DNA of 7,662 bases from a bacterium. Its GTDB lineage: Bacteria > CSSED10-310 > JAJRTK01. The stretch is from positions 1 to 7,662 of the forward strand of contig JAJRTK010000403.1 of assembly GCA_024278345.1 (NCBI GenBank), given 5' to 3'. The notes beneath the pieces are model-generated. The model saw only the letters and a list, made by a program, of their open reading frames with translations. It was not told where the DNA came from and did no database searches. The first letter of the stretch is position 1. Every line of letters starts with the position of its first letter. Positions 1-7,498 of this stretch are shown piece after piece. The translations under genes were made by a program, and so were the position numbers.

Positions 1-445
1 CGTAGGAATAGAACGGGTTCTCGAAGTAATATCGAAGCCCGGCCCTCTGGGTCCGTGGAAAAGGCTGGAGACTGGAATGGCGGGAGATCGCCTCGAATCT
101 TTCCAGTTGAGACTCCAGGTTCAGATCGATCCCCAAAGGCGGATTCAACGGGACAGAGAAGATCCGGTCCTCCCGCTCCCTGATCCGTCGGAGATCCGGG
201 AGGGGCGAGTAGAAGCTCCCCGGATCGTTGAAGGCGAACTGCCGCCGGAGCTCCTGGTTTTCCCGCTCTAATCCATGGACAAGAAGGCGCAGTCGTTCGG
301 CGGAGCGCCGCTGCTGCTCCGCTTCTTCCCGCAATGGGGCCAACTGGGAGTCAAAGGCCGAATCCGCCCCGCCACCTCCATCGCTGGTGGCATCAAAGCC
401 GAGACGGCGAATCCGTCTCCATATCTTTCCCAGCGACCTACCCAT
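1..445 (-). CDS. N-terminal part of a probable class I SAM-dependent methyltransferase (gene continues past the left edge)
   Basis: The first 148 residues of a gene whose 3' part lies outside the window. The ATG at 445-443 overlaps the end of the preceding large gene by 8 bases. No other start codon lies between it and the in-frame stop at 484-482. A GGAG sits at 448-451, only two bases from the ATG, so initiation probably relies on translational coupling. Residues 1-15 are basic (GRSLGKIWRRIRR). A Gly-rich turn at 23-26 follows, then a Glu/Gln/Arg-rich coiled-coil-like helix at about 30-70. From about 100 the pattern GIDLNLESQLERFEAI and then GLRYYFENPFYSY at the cut edge resembles the segment that, from memory, precedes the SAM-binding Rossmann domain in a family of surface-glycan-associated class I methyltransferases. 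The SAM-binding motifs themselves are not visible, so the assignment rests on this lead-in and on the operon context. It could instead be another glycan-modifying enzyme. Confidence 0.6.
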   Translation of the reverse strand, partial: MGRSLGKIWRRIRRLGFDATSDGGGGADSAFDSQLAPLREEAEQQRRSAERLRLLVHGLERENQELRRQFAFNDPGSFYSPLPDLRRIREREDRIFSVPLNPPLGIDLNLESQLERFEAISRHSSLQPFPRTQRAGLRYYFENPFYSY

Positions 446-3400
446 GGCTCCGTCCCGCCTGGATCGGAAGTGCCTTCTTCCCTAGGAAAATCGGATAAGT
501 CTGAAGATAGCCATATTCCCTGGACCAGGGAAACCAGGCGGCCACTTCCTGGAAACCGATCTCCCGCATTTCGTCCAAGAGATCCCAGCCGAAGTGGCGA
601 TAAACCAGGGAACCCTCGTCGCTCAAGGGGTTGCCATGGTATTCGGGGTCCAGCAGGTGGCGCAACGTTCCATCCTCTTCCTCAACGGCGCGGACAAGAT
701 GATCGCGACGGCCCAGGTCGAACGGGACGGACAGGAGCAGGCTTCCTCCCGGCGCCGTGACGCGGAGTAGTTCTTCCAGTGCCCGCCGGTAGTCGGAGAC
801 GTGCTCCAGGACGTCCAGGCATAGAACAAGATCGAACCGGGAAGAAGAAAAGGTCAGGTTTCGGAGATCCTCGTTCCGAATTCCCCGGAGTGAGCAGGTT
901 CCCCGGGGAACCTGGGTTCCCAGGTATTCGCTTCCCTGGACCCGGCGGTAGTTGGAGGCGTACCAGCGATAGAGCGGCGTGACCTGCTCCGTGAGGTAAA
1001 TGGCCGTTTCACGCAAGGGCTTGGCCAACCGGTTGGCCAGGTGGATCGCTGCCCGAGTCCGGTTGTTGAGGTGGCAGGAGGGGCAGATGAGGTGTTCTCT
1101 CCAATTGGGCCGGGGCCGGCCGTCGATTTCATGGCTATAGGTCCAATCGACGGCGAAGTCGGCCGCGGCCTGACAGACAAAGCAATGGCCGGTGACGAAA
1201 AAGGGGTGCCCTTCCACCGTCAATTCCCTTTCCAGGGTTCTCCGCCTTTGGAGCAGCGGAGCGTTGGCCTCCCGGAACCGCCGATACTCCGCCAGGGAAG
1301 CGGCAGACTGGAGCCAGCCTTCCCCGCGGTGGGCAAGCGGCTGGGTAGACACGTGATTTTCGCCGGCCTTTGGCGTAGGTTTCTTCTTCAGGGCTGGGCT
1401 TTCGGGAACGAGATCCCCAAGGATCTCTTTCAGCCGGGCCTTGGCCACGCCGGGAGAAAACGAACGCTCGATAACCTTCATCCCGGCTTCCGATAGCCGG
1501 CACCACAACTCTTCGTCCCGGTAAAGGCGAACCACCGCCGCCGCGAAGCCGGCGGGATCGTCGGCAATCAAGAGTTCCCGTTCGTGGGCCAGATCCATTC
1601 CTTCGGCGGCCACCGTGGTGGCCACGCAAGGAAGTCCCAAAGCTAGGCTGTGTCCCACCTTCCCTTTCACTCCGGCACCGTACCGGAGCGGCGCCACCGA
1701 AAGACGGCATTCCGCGAAGAAGGGATCCACGTCAGGCACGAAGCCCCAGACCCTCACTCGTTCCGATCCCAGAGCACGGACCTCCTCAGTGGCACGGCTT
1801 CCCACCAGATGAAGCACGATTTGAGGCAACTCCCGAGCAACCAAGGGTAGGATCTCCCTGGCGAACCAGCAGACTCCGTCCAGATTGGGCGGATGCTCGA
1901 AACCTCCGATGAAAAGGAGATCCTTCCTGGCACCAAACGCCGCGCCGGGCTTGCGCGGGGAATGGATGTTCGACAGGATGTGGACTTCCAGGTTGGGATC
2001 GGCCTCCAGTAGAAGGGCTTTCTCCACCGGGCTCACCACCAGTGTCGCGTCGGCGAGGCCGGCGATCTCCAGCTCCCGGCGCATGGTTTCCATGGCCTCC
2101 GCGGCAAGCTTCTCGTCGCCTTCGAGCTCGGATCGCCGCGTTTCCCGCAGGAAATGGAGATCCACAGTGTCGAAAAAGAGCTTGGCATTTTTGCAGCTCC
2201 GGCGAACCTGGTGGAAGACATCCCGGGCCGTGGAAAGGCGGCTGATGAAGACCGCGTCGTACAGGGGGCCGCTCCGTTGCAGGAAATCGTTCACTGATGT
2301 GACGAAGGGCGCGTAGAGTACTTCGACCCCCACTCTCTGAAGCTCGGAGCAGTAGGGTTCGTGCCGCCAGAGGTTGAGAGGCAGGAAAGTGACCTTGAAT
2401 CCCAGCTCCCGGAGTGCCCGGAAGATGGCGGTCATCCTCACCGATCCAGCGTCCTGGTCCGGCGTCGGGAGCCGGTGGTCCAGCACAAGGATCCGCCGGC
2501 GCACCGCCCTTTCCTTCTCAAGCTCAGGCGCCGCTCCGCTGGGCCGATGCCTTCTCAGCCGTTCTTGCCAACGCTCCAGGAAACGGTGACGGTTCCTTTC
2601 CTGGTACTTCTTGCTCCCCCGCGCCGGATCGGTGCCGCAAGTGGCCCCCTCCTCGTGATGAACGCGAACCTCGGGCTGGACATAGACCTTGTACCCCGCT
2701 TCCCGGATCTTGAAAGCCAGGTCAGTGTCTTCATAGTAGGCCGGAGCGTAACGCTCGTCGAACCTCCCCACATCCACAAAGAGCTGGTAAGGAACCATGA
2801 TACAAGCGGCGGAACAATAATCGACTTCCCGAGCGTAGCCGATCTCCGGATCGCCTGGGTCCCGATCCCGACCGTAATTCCAAGCCGTTCCATCCCTCCA
2901 GACCAGGCCGCCGGACTCCTGGACACGACCATCGCCACCCAATAGCATCGCCCCCACAAGCCCGGCCCGAGGCAGCTCGGAAAAGCTTTGAACCAGCCCG
3001 TCGAGCCAGCCACCCGTCACCCGCGTGTCATTGTTCAAAAGAACCAGGTACTCTCCTTGCGCCGAACAGCTCCCCAAATTCACCGCCCGCAAGAAACCCA
3101 GGTTTTCCGGACATCGAACGATCCGCAAGTTCTCGATCTCCGATAGAACCCCAAACGTCTCGTCGGTGGAAGCATCATCCACGATCAGGACTTCGAAGGG
3201 AACCTTCGTGGGGGCGCTGGCAATCGATTCCAGGCACCGAAGAGTCAGGTCGATCTGGTTGTAGACGGGGATGAGGACGGTCACCCGCGGCTCGGAGCAG
3301 GCTTCGAGCTTCACGGCCGCCAAACAAAACGCTCCCGTTGACATGGCAGCGGAGATCACCTCTTCCAGCACCGCCTGGCGTTGATGGCCCCCGATTCCAC

Positions 3401-5159
3401 GCCTCTTGATGCTCTTGCCGCCTTCGGGAGGGCCTCGCCTCCCGCCGCCACCCCGCGGGATCCCTCGGAACCGATCCCGAAAACCACGAAGAAAACCCAC
3501 GAGCCACCTGGCTTGCCCGGGAGCTATCAACCCTACGCGATGCCGAATCTGCCCCAGGAACCGCGCCCGATACTCTACTTTGGCCAGCCGCGCCGCGTGA
3601 TCCGCAAGCTGCGTGGCCACGGAACGGAGCCACCAATTTTGCTCCCGGAGTCCCTGCTGGTGGCGCAAGATCTCTTGGCCATGTCCATCCAGTCTCTCCC
3701 CCTGGAGTTGGAGCCACAGGGTTCGCTCCTGAAGAAGTCCCGTAATCCCACAAAGCTGATGGTTCGTTTCTTTCCCTTGGCGCTCCACAAGGCCAAGCCA
3801 CCGTCGAAGCTCTGCCCCTTCTTCCGCCGCGGCCGCCACCAGGCCAGCCAGTTCTTCCTCCTTGTTTTCCAGGGACTTGACCCGCTCCCGCTCCCGCCGG
3901 AGCTGCTCTCGAAGGGCCTGGCTCGTCTCCGCCTCTCCCTGAAGCCGCTGCCGCAACAGCCCATGGCCGTCCATCAATTTTTCGATCTGCTCCTGAAAAC
4001 CGCGGTTGACCTCCAGTTGGCGGCCAAGCTGCTCCTGAAAACCGCGGTTGACCTCCAGTTGGCGGCCAAGCTGCTCCTGAAGAGCCAGGTTCATCTCCAC
4101 CTGGCGGCCAAGCTGTGTCTGCAATTTCTCGTTGACCCGCGCCTGGGAGCCAAGCCGCCTCTGAAAAGCCCGGTTGGCCTCCACCTGCTTGTCAAGCTGG
4201 ACCCAGAACCCCTTCTCCACCAACATGCCCGGACTCACCCACGCCCTCCCGATTGCGGGGAGAGTGCCGCTCGTCTCTTCCGCGAGTTCAACCGCATGCT
4301 CCCCGGCAAAGGGGTCGATGCGGGCCATCACGGCATGCAACTCCGTGCGAAGCGCATCATACCAATCTCCTGCCTGGGAAAAAGTCTCCCAACGAACCTT
4401 GCCAAGGGCACGATAGAGCCTTTTCACCAGGGAATCGACCCGTCCGAAATAGCTTTCCGGCCCGCGAGGAACGGCCCGGTGGTGACGAAGCCCGGGATCG
4501 AGGAAATCTCGAAGCTCCTCCTCCGCATCCGCCACCGACCGAGGCCACCGCAGCTCCAGACTTTCCTCCACCCCACGCAAAACCCCCACGGGATCCACCA
4601 AAAGATCTTCAAAGGCCACGGCGGCCCGAAACCGCCCACGGGAATAGAGCTCGGCGGAAAGATTGTGCTCCGCCCACAAAAGACCGGATTTCTCCGGTGT
4701 GAACCCATCGCGCCGACCCAGGGAATCCGCCACCTCCGCCGGGTGCCGGTAGACCAAAAGAAGCCGCGGTTCCACGCCACGCTCCTCCAACATCTCAAGC
4801 CACAGTGGCAACAGCCGGCAAAGCCGAGGATCCTTCACTCCCCAGGGCCGACCCCAACCAAGCCGCTCCTCTAGCCAGGTCGCAAGCTCCTCTCCCAGCT
4901 CTCCGGCGAGCCCGTCTCGCAACCGCCCCACCCCCGGCCCCCAAAGATCGTCCCAACGGCCTCCCGCAACGCAAAACAGCTTCCGGTGAATCTCGTAAAC
5001 CACCAAATCTTCGAAGAAACCCCGATCATTCTCCCCACTTCGCGGCGCCATGAGCCGAGCCCCGAAATCGACCCCCAAAATCTGGAGAGCCCCGGCCAGA
5101 GCCGATGTCCCGCTCCGGTGCATCCCCGCGACCAACCAACACTCTTCAGCCTTCTTCAT
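438..5159 (-). CDS. Five-part fusion: sulfotransferase, coiled coil, GT2 glycosyltransferase, GT4 glycosyltransferase, methyltransferase-like domain
   Basis: A 1573-residue protein, probably cytoplasmic or membrane-peripheral, that builds and modifies the exported glycan. Residues 1-250 look like a PAPS-dependent sulfotransferase: P-loop GMHRSGTSALAGAL at 12-25 and a 3'-phosphate-binding-type motif YRHPAEVADSL at 137-147. Residues about 318-545 are Gln/Glu/Arg-rich coiled coil with five 14-residue repeats at 322-391. A basic amphipathic stretch (546-566) and a Gly/Arg-rich linker (567-592) follow. Residues 625-865 are a GT-A, GT2-type domain: VTVLIPVYN at 626-634, DDAS at 661-664, NND at 709-711 (DXD position), and EDTD at 810-813 near the expected catalytic acid. 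Residues 887-1250 are GT-B, GT4-like, with a GAGVKGK motif at 1161-1167. Residues about 1313-1560 are methyltransferase-like, with CxxC pairs at 1326/1329 and 1359/1362 and FDLVLCLDVLEHV at 1442-1454. The ATG at 5159 has GGAGG six bases upstream and overlaps the ATPase gene by 14 bases. The architecture is clear. Sugar donors and acceptors cannot be read from sequence. Confidence 0.9.
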   Translation of the reverse strand: MKKAEECWLVAGMHRSGTSALAGALQILGVDFGARLMAPRSGENDRGFFEDLVVYEIHRKLFCVAGGRWDDLWGPGVGRLRDGLAGELGEELATWLEERLGWGRPWGVKDPRLCRLLPLWLEMLEERGVEPRLLLVYRHPAEVADSLGRRDGFTPEKSGLLWAEHNLSAELYSRGRFRAAVAFEDLLVDPVGVLRGVEESLELRWPRSVADAEEELRDFLDPGLRHHRAVPRGPESYFGRVDSLVKRLYRALGKVRWETFSQAGDWYDALRTELHAVMARIDPFAGEHAVELAEETSGTLPAIGRAWVSPGMLVEKGFWVQLDKQVEANRAFQRRLGSQARVNEKLQTQLGRQVEMNLALQEQLGRQLEVNRGFQEQLGRQLEVNRGFQEQIEKLMDGHGLLRQRLQGEAETSQALREQLRRERERVKSLENKEEELAGLVAAAAEEGAELRRWLGLVERQGKETNHQLCGITGLLQERTLWLQLQGERLDGHGQEILRHQQGLREQNWWLRSVATQLADHAARLAKVEYRARFLGQIRHRVGLIAPGQARWLVGFLRGFRDRFRGIPRGGGGRRGPPEGGKSIKRRGIGGHQRQAVLEEVISAAMSTGAFCLAAVKLEACSEPRVTVLIPVYNQIDLTLRCLESIASAPTKVPFEVLIVDDASTDETFGVLSEIENLRIVRCPENLGFLRAVNLGSCSAQGEYLVLLNNDTRVTGGWLDGLVQSFSELPRAGLVGAMLLGGDGRVQESGGLVWRDGTAWNYGRDRDPGDPEIGYAREVDYCSAACIMVPYQLFVDVGRFDERYAPAYYEDTDLAFKIREAGYKVYVQPEVRVHHEEGATCGTDPARGSKKYQERNRHRFLERWQERLRRHRPSGAAPELEKERAVRRRILVLDHRLPTPDQDAGSVRMTAIFRALRELGFKVTFLPLNLWRHEPYCSELQRVGVEVLYAPFVTSVNDFLQRSGPLYDAVFISRLSTARDVFHQVRRSCKNAKLFFDTVDLHFLRETRRSELEGDEKLAAEAMETMRRELEIAGLADATLVVSPVEKALLLEADPNLEVHILSNIHSPRKPGAAFGARKDLLFIGGFEHPPNLDGVCWFAREILPLVARELPQIVLHLVGSRATEEVRALGSERVRVWGFVPDVDPFFAECRLSVAPLRYGAGVKGKVGHSLALGLPCVATTVAAEGMDLAHERELLIADDPAGFAAAVVRLYRDEELWCRLSEAGMKVIERSFSPGVAKARLKEILGDLVPESPALKKKPTPKAGENHVSTQPLAHRGEGWLQSAASLAEYRRFREANAPLLQRRRTLERELTVEGHPFFVTGHCFVCQAAADFAVDWTYSHEIDGRPRPNWREHLICPSCHLNNRTRAAIHLANRLAKPLRETAIYLTEQVTPLYRWYASNYRRVQGSEYLGTQVPRGTCSLRGIRNEDLRNLTFSSSRFDLVLCLDVLEHVSDYRRALEELLRVTAPGGSLLLSVPFDLGRRDHLVRAVEEEDGTLRHLLDPEYHGNPLSDEGSLVYRHFGWDLLDEMREIGFQEVAAWFPWSREYGYLQTYPIFLGKKALPIQAGRSHG
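3987..4196. repeat. Five tandem 42-bp units encoding a 14-residue coiled-coil repeat
   Basis: Five in-frame units of exactly 42 bases: 3987-4028, 4029-4070, 4071-4112, 4113-4154 and 4155-4196. The first two are identical at every base; the others diverge progressively. On the coding (minus) strand they give, in protein order, LDKQVEANRAFQRR, LGSQARVNEKLQTQ, LGRQVEMNLALQEQ, then LGRQLEVNRGFQEQ twice (residues 322-391). Fourteen residues equal two heptads, so adding or losing a unit keeps both the reading frame and the coiled-coil register. The two identical copies indicate a recent duplication. Confidence 0.95.
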
Positions 5160-6684
5160 CCACCGCCTCCACCCGCCGAACAGCCTCCGCGATCATCGCT
5201 CCACGGCCCGCTTTTTCCTCTCCCGCCTCTTTCAGCACCGTCCGAACAGTACAGCGGCCACCCAACGAAAGGTCAAAGTACCCGAAACTCTTCTTGGAAG
5301 CGCCGGGCAGGATCCGGAACATCGTGGCATCCAAAATGCGGTGAAGATGCCGCTCCTCCCCATCGATCCAGGCGACGATCCCTGCGTTAAGCAAATAGAT
5401 GCCTTCCCCGAAAAACGTGTAGAGATCGCATTCGACCGTCACGATTCCTCCCTTCCTTACAAGCTCAAGCCCCTTCCCCAACAAGTGAGTCGTCACCCCC
5501 CCAAGCTCAATCCCCGTCGCGCTCTTGAGCGTCGTGCCGCCTCTGACTCCCGTCGCCGACTCCAGGAACCGAACCTCGTAAGCATAGAGATAGCGATGGC
5601 CCGCCTCCAAAACATTCACGCGGTTTCCCCTGCCATCCTCGATCCGGACATCGAAAATCTCGGCGCCGCCAGTGCCGTAACCGGTGGTGCTCTTCGGCAC
5701 AAGATTCGGATCGAGCTGCCCCGATCCCCACGCGATTCCACCCCAACCCCCAGCCGTGTCTCCCCGGGAACACCAAGAAGATCCAGGATGTTCATTCTTT
5801 GTGCTGCGTTCCGCTCCCATCGGGCGCCGTCCGGCGCCCACTACTCGCCTATCATCCCGTCCGGCCACCACCACGGCCCCCGGATCCTCTCCGCCGTCAA
5901 GAAGGGCGATCTGGCGAAGCACCTCTTCCCGCTGGCTCTCCGAAGCATACATGAGCCGCTGGTACTGGTGGATGACTGCCGCCGGAGCCGCCGTGAGCAG
6001 ACGGCGGCCCTTGTCCAGGAGCACCGCACGGTGGCAAAGCTCCACAATCCGGACGCCCCAGTGGGAGACAAAGAGGATCGTCTTCCCACTGCGCCGAAAC
6101 TCTTCCAGCCGGGCAAAGCATTTCCGCTGGAAGGCTTCATCGCCCACGGCCAGGGCTTCGTCAATCACCAGGATATCGGGATCGACGTTGAAGGCAACGG
6201 CGATGGCCAACCGCAGGAACATGCCGCTGGAGTAGAGCTTCACCGGCTGCAAGATGAATTCGCCGATATCGGCAAACTCCACGATATCCTCGTACCGTTC
6301 CCGGATCTCCCAATCGGAAAGCCCCAGGATCGACCCGTTCATAAAGACGTTTTCCCGACCGGTGAACTCGGGATTAAAGCCCGCCCCAAGCTCCAGAAGG
6401 GCCGCCACGCGCCCACGGATCTCCACCGATCCGCGAGTCGGTTCCAGGATTCCGCAAACCAGTTGGAGCAGCGTCGATTTCCCGGCGCCATTCCTGCCCA
6501 CAATCCCCACCGTCTCGCCGCGCCGCACCTCGAGATCCAGATCCCGCAGTGCCCAAAAATCATTGTAAAATTTTTTCCGGCCACGCCATAACATCTGCCA
6601 CAACCGGTCGGCGGGGCTGTGGTAGATCGCATACGACTTGCCCACGCCTCGAAGCTCGATGGCAATGTCGGATTCAGAGGACAT
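5146..6684 (-). CDS. wzt: Polysaccharide ABC transporter ATP-binding protein, Wzt-like, with C-terminal glycan-recognition-type domain
   Basis: A 512-residue ATPase predicted to energise export of an undecaprenyl-linked polysaccharide through the permease encoded just upstream. Residues about 7-245 form the nucleotide-binding domain: Walker A GRNGAGKST at 63-71, signature YSSGM at 151-155, Walker B ILVIDE at 171-176 and switch histidine H208 in ILFVSH. The YSSGM form of the signature is typical of the polysaccharide and teichoic-acid export subgroup. A long variable linker (about 250-325) leads to DPNLVPKST at 325-333 and GTGGAEIFDVRI at 337-348, followed by a beta-rich region to about 480 that matches the Wzt C-terminal domain pattern. 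In characterised O8/O9a systems that domain binds the modified chain end. The frame is open back to 6804, but the ATG at 6684 is preferred: it has GGAAGGG eight bases upstream, begins directly before the conserved domain, and gives only an 11-base overlap with the permease. The 3' end overlaps the next gene by 14 bases. Confidence 0.92.
   Translation of the reverse strand: MSSESDIAIELRGVGKSYAIYHSPADRLWQMLWRGRKKFYNDFWALRDLDLEVRRGETVGIVGRNGAGKSTLLQLVCGILEPTRGSVEIRGRVAALLELGAGFNPEFTGRENVFMNGSILGLSDWEIRERYEDIVEFADIGEFILQPVKLYSSGMFLRLAIAVAFNVDPDILVIDEALAVGDEAFQRKCFARLEEFRRSGKTILFVSHWGVRIVELCHRAVLLDKGRRLLTAAPAAVIHQYQRLMYASESQREEVLRQIALLDGGEDPGAVVVAGRDDRRVVGAGRRPMGAERSTKNEHPGSSWCSRGDTAGGWGGIAWGSGQLDPNLVPKSTTGYGTGGAEIFDVRIEDGRGNRVNVLEAGHRYLYAYEVRFLESATGVRGGTTLKSATGIELGGVTTHLLGKGLELVRKGGIVTVECDLYTFFGEGIYLLNAGIVAWIDGEERHLHRILDATMFRILPGASKKSFGYFDLSLGGRCTVRTVLKEAGEEKAGRGAMIAEAVRRVEAVDEEG
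5166..5170 (-). promoter_or_regulatory. Ribosome binding site of the large fusion gene
   Basis: GGAGG on the minus strand, six bases before the ATG at 5159. It lies inside the 3' end of the ATPase gene and supports this start for the large protein. Confidence 0.75.
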
Positions 6685-7498
6685 CGGCGAAGCCCTTCCG
6701 GGTCTTATGGAACCAGGCCAGCCCCAATCCGGCCGCCACAACCGCCAGAATCCAGCCAAAACCCAGCACATCCCACCGCGGAAAATTCCCCTGGAGCAAA
6801 ACACGCCGTGTCTCTTCCACCGCGGTGGTCACCGGATTGAGATAGAGCCACGGCCGGTAGGCTTTCGGCACAAGCGACAGAGGGTAGAAAACCGGACAAA
6901 TAAATAGAAGAGCAGCCGTGACACTGGTGATCAAATGGGAAATATCCCTAAGAAAGACGCCAAGAGATGCCAGGAACCAGGAAAACCCCATGATTAGCAG
7001 AAGATAGGGAACCCAGATCAGCGGTAGAAAAAGAGCCGTCCAGGGGATCGTCCGGTACGCCGCTCCATAAAAGATAAACCAAACCGCCAGACTCGCCAGA
7101 GCGTGGAAAAGCGCCGTGCCTACCGCCATCACCGGGAGGATCTCCAGGGGAAATACCACCTTCTTGACATAGGCGGGCTGTTCCAGAATCAGACTGGGAG
7201 CACGGTTGAGCGATTCGGAAAAAAGGTTGAAGACAATGAGCCCCGCAAACAGAGTCGTGGCGTACTGAAAGCGGTTCGTTCCGGTCCCCCAACGCATCTC
7301 AAAGACCACGCTGAAAACGAACGTGTAAATCCCCAGCATCACCAGTGGCGTCGCCAAAGACCAGGTCAGCCCCAGGGCCGAGCCCCGGTAGCGGCCCATG
7401 ACATCCCGTTTGACCAGTCTCCAAAGCAGCCGCCGGTGACCAACAAGAGAAGCGATATCCAAAGGAACAACCGAAAGGAACCTATTCAATCGTTTCAC
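6674..7498 (-). CDS. wzm: Polysaccharide ABC transporter permease, Wzm-like (ABC-2 family)
   Basis: A 274-residue inner-membrane protein, the normal length for this family, forming the channel half of the exporter with the ATPase encoded next to it. The cytoplasmic N-terminus carries LLWRLVKRDVMGRYRGSALG (24-43), the lead-in typical of polysaccharide ABC-2 permeases. Hydrophobic segments lie at about 43-67, 78-98, 116-146, 151-180, 188-209 and 244-264, which fits six membrane spans. The region LEQPAYVKKVVFPLEILPV (105-123) and the last-loop NPVTTAVEETRRVLLQG (221-237) are also as expected. The start is GTG at 7498: an in-frame TGA at 7513-7511 excludes anything longer, and GAGG lies ten bases upstream. 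The 3' end overlaps the ATPase start by 11 bases, indicating coupled translation. It is the first visible gene of the operon. Export of O-antigen is more likely than of teichoic acid, but the substrate is inferred. Confidence 0.93.
   Translation of the reverse strand: MKRLNRFLSVVPLDIASLVGHRRLLWRLVKRDVMGRYRGSALGLTWSLATPLVMLGIYTFVFSVVFEMRWGTGTNRFQYATTLFAGLIVFNLFSESLNRAPSLILEQPAYVKKVVFPLEILPVMAVGTALFHALASLAVWFIFYGAAYRTIPWTALFLPLIWVPYLLLIMGFSWFLASLGVFLRDISHLITSVTAALLFICPVFYPLSLVPKAYRPWLYLNPVTTAVEETRRVLLQGNFPRWDVLGFGWILAVVAAGLGLAWFHKTRKGFADVL
6693..6699 (-). promoter_or_regulatory. Ribosome binding site of the Wzt-like gene
   Basis: GGAAGGG on the minus strand, eight bases before the ATG at 6684. 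It decides between this start and the longer open frame reaching 6804, which would add 40 residues without family support inside the permease gene. Confidence 0.7.

What the first reader, a model, noticed from the sequence alone, without database searches (positions are those of the whole stretch)
438..5159. Sulfotransferase, coiled coil, two glycosyltransferases and a methyltransferase-like domain in one polypeptide beside Wzm/Wzt
The sequence shows one uninterrupted 1573-codon frame carrying motifs of four catalytic folds plus a long coiled coil. ABC-exporter O-antigen systems normally spread these jobs over several proteins. In E. coli O8/O9a, WbdD combines chain-capping enzymes with a coiled-coil ruler and Wzt recognises the cap. 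Here a potential sulfating and methylating module sits on the same chain as the polymerising or adapting transferases, next to a Wzt with a C-terminal domain. Inference: a self-contained extend, cap and export machine for a sulfated and/or methylated glycan.
Basis: partly seen in the sequence, partly recalled or inferred. Interest (0 to 1): 0.75.

Follow-up and report, generated by a model that had tools for sequence, protein, structure and literature searches.

The report
Sulfate-capping, self-measuring glycan assembly protein
One very long bacterial protein appears to build a surface sugar chain, measure its length and cap its end with sulfate, and a matching export pump next door probably recognises that cap; sulfate would be a new kind of stop-and-ship signal for such chains.

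Summary
A 1573-codon minus-strand frame (438-5159) encodes a sulfotransferase, a heptad-repeat coil with a basic amphipathic helix, a GT2 and a GT4 glycosyltransferase, and a divergent methyltransferase-fold domain. It overlaps wzt, which carries a C-terminal carbohydrate-binding module (CBM). It is not an assembly chimera: wzm-wzt-[sulfotransferase-GT2-GT4] recurs in another phylum, and a cyanobacterial wzm-wzt-linked protein has the order sulfotransferase-coil-GT2-GT2-GT4-methyltransferase. The layout is that of known single-chain 'terminator-ruler-polymerase' proteins (Klebsiella O12 WbbB, O7 ORF6), with a sulfotransferase as terminator. The strongest new evidence is covariation. The window's Wzt CBM belongs to a subfamily found in 27 of 291 cyanobacterial genomes; 22 of those loci carry a sulfotransferase gene near wzt, against 1 of 20 loci whose Wzt has another C-terminus. 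Its only plasmid relative, in E. coli, sits beside a protein with an unrelated sulfotransferase, a coil and GTs, plus cysDNC for PAPS. Best explanation (0.65): a sulfate-terminated, ABC-exported glycan whose sulfate cap is the export signal. Methylation is unproven: the usual SAM-binding glycine loop is absent. I found no sulfate terminator in the papers searched, but the main review was not available. New variant of a known kind.

The parts
438..5159 (-). Single 1573-aa protein: sulfotransferase - coiled coil - amphipathic helix - GT2 - GT4 - methyltransferase-like
   Evidence: even codon-position GC
4260..5159 (-). Sulfotransferase domain (residues 1-300), proposed chain terminator
   Evidence: 17 of 21 aligned relatives match Sulfotransfer_3; profile hits sulfotransferases in the PDB; AlphaFold model pLDDT 86 with only sulfotransferases as top fold matches
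5103..5126 (-). 5'-phosphosulfate-binding loop GMHRSGTS (residues 12-19)
   Evidence: R15, G17, S19 invariant in 21 sequences; residues 12-19 invariant with 27 viral homologues; coordinates
4719..4751 (-). 3'-phosphate-binding motif with R138 and S146 eight residues apart, as in SULT enzymes
   Evidence: R138 and S146 invariant; comparison with SULT from established knowledge
3540..4208 (-). Heptad-repeat region (residues 318-540; strongest 371-455), with exact tandem 14-residue repeat QEQLGRQLEVNRGF at 361-388; proposed molecular ruler
3462..3512 (-). Basic amphipathic helix ARWLVGFLRGFRDRFRG (550-566) after the coil; proposed membrane contact
   Evidence: among the highest helical moments in the chain; membrane role inferred
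2550..3296 (-). GT2 glycosyltransferase (residues 622-870) with NND (709-711) and ED motifs
1410..2507 (-). GT4 glycosyltransferase (residues 885-1250)
465..1205 (-). Class-I methyltransferase-fold domain (1319-1565) with Cx2C...Cx2C (1326/1329, 1359/1362); glycine-rich SAM motif I replaced by IYLTEQVTPLY
5146..6684 (-). Wzt: ABC ATPase with C-terminal CBM; probable start ATG at 6684, overlapping wzm
5269..5685 (-). Wzt C-terminal carbohydrate-binding module of the sulfotransferase-linked subfamily
   Evidence: Wzt_C 1.6e-23; covariation; tree
6674..7498 (-). Wzm: ABC-2 permease
   Evidence: PF01061 1.3e-26
2..445 (-). Start of the next gene, 148 aa, cut by the contig end; overlaps the end of the large gene; identity unknown

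Best explanation
The large protein is a terminator-ruler-polymerase for an ABC-transporter-exported glycan. GT2 and GT4 extend a polyprenol-linked chain at the membrane. The coil holds the N-terminal sulfotransferase away from them, so only chains long enough to reach it are sulfated from PAPS at the non-reducing end. Sulfation stops growth, and the Wzt carbohydrate-binding module recognises the sulfated end and licenses export through Wzm/Wzt. Shown computationally: the domains and folds, the operon, recurrence of the architecture, and linkage of this CBM subfamily to sulfotransferases. Inferred: that sulfate is the terminal cap, that the coil sets length, and that the CBM binds the cap. The methyltransferase-like domain is an accessory module of uncertain activity.
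For: (a) Fold: the N-terminal domain model (pLDDT 86) has only sulfotransferases among the top PDB matches, many with PAP bound. PAPS-site residues are invariant. The host has two APS-kinase genes. (b) Order: N-terminal cap enzyme, coil, C-terminal GTs next to wzm/wzt is that of K. pneumoniae O12 WbbB and O7 ORF6; in all terminated systems of that paper Wzt carries a CBM that reads the cap (PMC11231755). (c) Covariation: the window's CBM hits 27 of 291 cyanobacterial genomes. 20 of 25 newly fetched loci have a sulfotransferase near wzt, plus the 2 already known. Only 1 of 20 other-C-terminus Wzt loci from the same phylum does, and that one was already known from the sulfotransferase search. 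Fisher p about 1e-7, without phylogenetic correction. In the tree the window falls in a 100/99 clade with 23 sulfotransferase-linked rows and no control row. (d) Independent case: the only plasmid relative of the CBM (E. coli KTa005) adjoins a 1787-aa Sulfotransfer_2-coil-WbsX-GT2-GT4 protein, with cysD, cysN, cysC and an SLC13 permease in the cluster: a different sulfotransferase family with the same layout. (e) A wzm-wzt-linked cyanobacterial protein has ST-coil-GT2-GT2-GT4-MT in one chain (L218); G073 in another phylum has wzm-wzt-[ST-GT2-GT4].
Against: No biochemistry or glycan structure. G073's Wzt has no C-terminal domain (294 aa), so there the product cannot be CBM-selected. Five CBM-subfamily loci lack a sulfotransferase: three are orphan wzm-wzt pairs, but L225 and L226 lie among other glycan genes. 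Several linked sulfotransferases have no long coil (L202, L208, L211). The cyanobacterial loci are related to each other. The covariation does not tell a terminal sulfate from internal ones.
Confidence: 0.65

Rival explanations
1. The sulfotransferase decorates internal residues of a sulfated glycan as the chain grows. It is not the terminator; the methyltransferase-like domain or chain-export coupling ends the chain.
For: Internally sulfated bacterial glycans exist (general knowledge). G073 keeps ST-GT2-GT4 with a Wzt that lacks a CBM. Several linked sulfotransferases lack a long coil.
Against: The enzyme sits at the far end of the coil from the GTs, the position of every characterised terminator in PMC11231755. 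The CBM subfamily follows the sulfotransferase rather than any methyltransferase: L093, L209 and L210 have a sulfotransferase and GTs but no methyltransferase domain in that protein.
Confidence: 0.2
2. The cap is methylated, or sulfated and methylated: the C-terminal domain is an active O-methyltransferase and the terminus carries both groups, like the two-step phosphate-then-methyl cap of WbdD.
For: Class I methyltransferase fold. A close relative is a separate gene next to a GT2-GT4 fusion in G271 (43 percent). L091 pairs an N-terminal canonical methyltransferase with the sulfotransferase, and L218 ends in a canonical one.
Against: Motif I, the SAM glycine loop, is replaced by IYLTEQVTPLY here and is not glycine-rich in close relatives. 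The domain sits at the polymerase end, not the terminator end. The module is not constant across the CBM-linked loci.
Confidence: 0.12
3. Assembly join: separate genes fused in this metagenome assembly.
For: The window is a short contig of a 550-contig assembly; read coverage is not available.
Against: Same order in unrelated genomes; even codon-position GC and overlapping genes.
Confidence: 0.02

Closest known systems
Klebsiella pneumoniae O7 ORF6 (PMC11231755)
   Same: Single chain with N-terminal terminator, central coiled coil and two C-terminal GTs, beside wzm/wzt
   Different: Terminator is a methyltransferase-kinase making methyl-phosphate, with a CBM in the terminator; here it is a sulfotransferase, and a methyltransferase-fold domain is added at the C-terminus
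WbbB of K. pneumoniae O12 (as described in PMC11231755)
   Same: Polymerisation, length control and termination in one protein; Wzt CBM reads the cap
   Different: Terminator is a Kdo glycosyltransferase
WbdD of E. coli O8/O9a with WbdA
   Same: Cap enzyme plus coiled-coil ruler; Wzt reads the cap
   Different: Polymerase is a separate protein; cap is methyl or methyl-phosphate
WsaE of Geobacillus stearothermophilus S-layer glycan (PMC2943079)
   Same: Trifunctional: modifying enzyme plus two GTs in one chain, with wzm, wzt and wsaE genes overlapping
   Different: Methyl cap from an N-terminal methyltransferase; no sulfotransferase; the review says an additional length-determining factor is possibly required
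E. coli KTa005 pKTa005_1 1787-aa protein (found here, not characterised)
   Same: Sulfotransferase-coil-GTs beside a Wzt with the same CBM subfamily
   Different: Sulfotransfer_2 family, added WbsX domain, PAPS-supply genes in the cluster, no methyltransferase domain

Membership tests
ABC-transporter-dependent glycan pathway with Wzm/Wzt | Wzm permease and Wzt ATPase genes together with the GT gene | tested here: met
Terminated ABC pathway | CBM on the Wzt C-terminus | tested here: met
   Wzt_C 1.6e-23
Coiled-coil terminator proteins | Cap enzyme separated from polymerase by an extended coiled coil | tested here: met
   heptad register about 346-540, between sulfotransferase and GT2; no structure of the coil itself
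Coiled-coil terminator proteins | Modification at the non-reducing end that is required for export | not testable with these tools
   needs glycan structure and mutants
PAPS-dependent sulfotransferases | Sulfotransferase fold with 5'- and 3'-phosphate-binding motifs | tested here: met
PAPS-dependent sulfotransferases | PAPS supply in the host | tested here: met
   two APS-kinase genes in the own genome
Class I SAM-dependent methyltransferases | Rossmann-like methyltransferase fold | tested here: inconclusive
   fold matches at pLDDT 72 from a 3-row alignment
Class I SAM-dependent methyltransferases | Glycine-rich SAM-binding motif I | tested here: not met
   I therefore call it methyltransferase-like, not a methyltransferase
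WbdD family | Kinase and/or methyltransferase as terminator | tested here: not met
   no kinase domain; N-terminal domain is a sulfotransferase

The most novel reading that the evidence does not exclude
Sulfate is a previously undescribed class of chain-terminating and export-licensing cap for ABC-exported bacterial glycans, widespread in cyanobacteria and also seen in a rare small phylum and on an E. coli plasmid. It was recruited at least twice from unrelated sulfotransferase families onto coiled-coil rulers, and is read by one dedicated Wzt CBM subfamily.
Probability: 0.5. Interest if true: 0.8.

Novelty: new variant of a known kind. Interest (0 to 1): 0.66.

Why it matters
Known terminators in this pathway install methyl, methyl-phosphate or Kdo caps. 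A sulfate cap would add a new chemistry, couple glycan export to sulfur metabolism, and explain why long sulfotransferase-GT fusions sit beside wzm/wzt in cyanobacteria and elsewhere. It also gives a sequence predictor: this Wzt CBM subfamily would forecast a sulfated chain end, which is testable in cultured cyanobacteria.

Tried and rejected
GT4 residue H1167 looked like a lost catalytic residue, but the position varies freely in relatives: rejected. Assembly chimera: rejected on recurrence of the architecture and even codon-position GC. The long antisense frames (3381-4874 and 5050-6591, plus strand) are taken as shadow frames of GC-rich coding DNA. P0004 found no Pfam family, no plasmid match and no match in the loci held. 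A phylum search centred on a named locus was not accepted. The likely key review (doi 10.1074/jbc.REV120.009402) and the WbbB paper are not held, so earlier mention of sulfotransferase terminators there cannot be excluded. Searches of the held library found none.
Full report
What is there. The window is the whole of contig C339 (7,662 bases) of a 6.06-Mb, 550-contig metagenome-assembled genome; only seven other genomes of its phylum turned up in the relatives searches. Four genes run on the minus strand with overlapping ends: wzm (7498-6674), wzt (6684-5146), the large gene (5159-438) and a gene cut off by the contig end (445-2). The large frame has 1573 codons. Codon-position GC keeps the same pattern throughout.

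Domains. Pfam gives GT2 at 627-747, GT4 at 1079-1215 and the second half of methyltransferase models at 1427-1489. The sulfotransferase is below threshold for this sequence alone, but 17 of 21 aligned relatives match Sulfotransfer_3. A profile of the 21 finds tyrosylprotein, aryl and polyketide-pathway sulfotransferases in the PDB at 1e-5 to 1e-2. R15, G17, S19, K109, D110, P111, R138 and S146 are invariant; the 5'-loop GMHRSGTS and R138/S146 fit the known PAPS-site pattern (comparison with SULT from general knowledge). The AlphaFold model (28 sequences, pLDDT 86, pTM 0.86) has only sulfotransferases among its top matches. TM-scores are modest (about 0.5), so the substrate cannot be read from it.

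Coil. Hydrophobic residues keep one a/d register from about 346 to 540, strongest at 371-455, with an exact tandem 14-residue repeat at 361-388. Two 84-residue windows within the sulfotransferase region score at least as high on the power test, so that test alone is not specific; the register and the repeat carry the argument. After the coil comes a basic amphipathic helix (550-566), among the highest helical moments in the chain. WbdD has a membrane-associated amphipathic helix after its coil (PMC11231755), so a membrane role is inferred.

Methyltransferase-like domain. The model (3 sequences, pLDDT 72) matches class I methyltransferases, CgnL among them. Motif I is missing: where a glycine loop is expected the sequence reads IYLTEQVTPLY, followed by GSEYLG. 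Two Cx2C pairs precede it. A close relative is a separate gene next to a GT2-GT4 fusion in G271, which links the module to this kind of GT. Activity is open.

Relatives. GT2-GT4 fusions are common and often lie beside wzm/wzt in Clostridia and on alphaproteobacterial plasmids. Sulfotransferase relatives are rarer: 10 of 386 genomes, the window's own included, have a hit. G073, in another phylum, has wzm-wzt-[ST-GT2-GT4], 41 percent identical in the sulfotransferase and 51 percent in the GTs. Its phylum also has ST-GT2-GT2 proteins. G332, G054 and G198 have wzm, wzt and sulfotransferase genes close together.

Covariation test. I searched with the Wzt CBM alone. In 386 genomes it hit only two besides the window: G054 and G332, the same two wzm-wzt-sulfotransferase loci. 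In their phylum, cyanobacteria (PsaA/PsaB present in the five tested), it hit 27 of 291 genomes in 19 genera. I fetched 25 new neighbourhoods: 20 have a sulfotransferase near wzt. With the two known ones this makes 22 of 27. As control I took 20 Wzt loci from the same phylum whose C-terminus is not of this subfamily: 1 has a sulfotransferase, G198, already known from the sulfotransferase search. Fisher p is 1e-7 for all loci and 3e-8 without those first found by sulfotransferase; neither corrects for kinship. The CBM tree puts the window in a 28-row clade (support 100/99) with 23 sulfotransferase-linked rows, 4 without, and no control row. Some branches are long and the exact place of the window is unsure. 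Of the five negatives, L204, L207 and L213 are wzm-wzt pairs without glycan genes next to them; L225 and L226 are in glycan loci without a recognised sulfotransferase. L226 is the weakest CBM hit and falls outside the clade.

Same order elsewhere. L218 (G540) has, just downstream of wzt, a 2144-aa protein with sulfotransferase 14-183, coil 276-486, two GT2, GT4 and a canonical methyltransferase 1908-2016. This is the window's order with one extra GT2. L210 is ST-coil-GT2-GT2-GT4; L205 is ST-GT2x3-methyltransferase-like. L220 and L221 are of the same size class and have coils but were not Pfam-scanned.

Independent recruitment. The only plasmid hit of the CBM (37 percent) is on E. coli KTa005 pKTa005_1, seen in one of 5,426 complete E. 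coli genomes. Its cluster has rmlBDAC, wzm, wzt and a 1787-aa protein with Sulfotransfer_2 (24-252, 1.1e-22), a very regular coil (264-495), WbsX, GT2 and GT4; further along come cysD, cysN, an SLC13 permease and cysC. A different sulfotransferase family in the same slot, the same CBM subfamily and dedicated PAPS genes together argue that sulfate is what the system is about. The window's host has two APS-kinase genes elsewhere.

Mechanism and precedent. In K. pneumoniae O12 and O7 one protein joins terminator, coiled-coil ruler and GTs; the terminator is always at the far end of the coil, and Wzt CBMs admit only terminated chains (PMC11231755). WsaE joins a cap methyltransferase to two GTs next to overlapping wzm-wzt (PMC2943079). 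The window fits this plan with a sulfotransferase as terminator. Shown by computation: domains, folds, operon, recurrence and covariation. Inferred: terminal position of the sulfate, length control and CBM binding. Of the papers searched, one reports a separate sulfotransferase gene in an ABC O-antigen cluster (Aeromonas salmonicida ORF19) with no sulfate known in the glycan (PMC4483657). None describes a sulfate terminator; the main review is not held.

Verdict. Real, not an artefact, and a new variant of a known kind.

Noticed in passing
L176 (NZ_CP147085.1 44000-75000): An E. coli river-water IncF plasmid carries a complete-looking ABC-transporter glycan cluster with cysD, cysN, cysC and an SLC13 permease, seen in 1 of 5,426 complete E. 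coli genomes.
   Followed up: partly
L097-L169 (viral contigs): At least 73 viral contigs encode relatives of the GMHRSGTS sulfotransferase domain, many as short stand-alone proteins of about 215-230 aa; role unknown.
   Followed up: no
window 2-445, minus strand: Next gene of the operon, cut by the contig end, with no Pfam family and no plasmid relative.
   Followed up: partly
L080 7923-11564: Desulfolutivibrio plasmid protein with an N-terminal sulfotransferase and a coil of about 370 residues, close to a cysC gene and without recognised GTs: possibly a separate terminator-ruler like WbdD.
   Followed up: partly
L204, L207, L213: Orphan wzm-wzt pairs with the sulfotransferase-linked CBM but no glycan genes beside them (one next to a transposase).
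   Followed up: partly
L091 7506-9863: Cyanobacterial protein with a canonical methyltransferase, a sulfotransferase and a coil, directly after wzt: a possible methyl-plus-sulfate terminator.
   Followed up: partly
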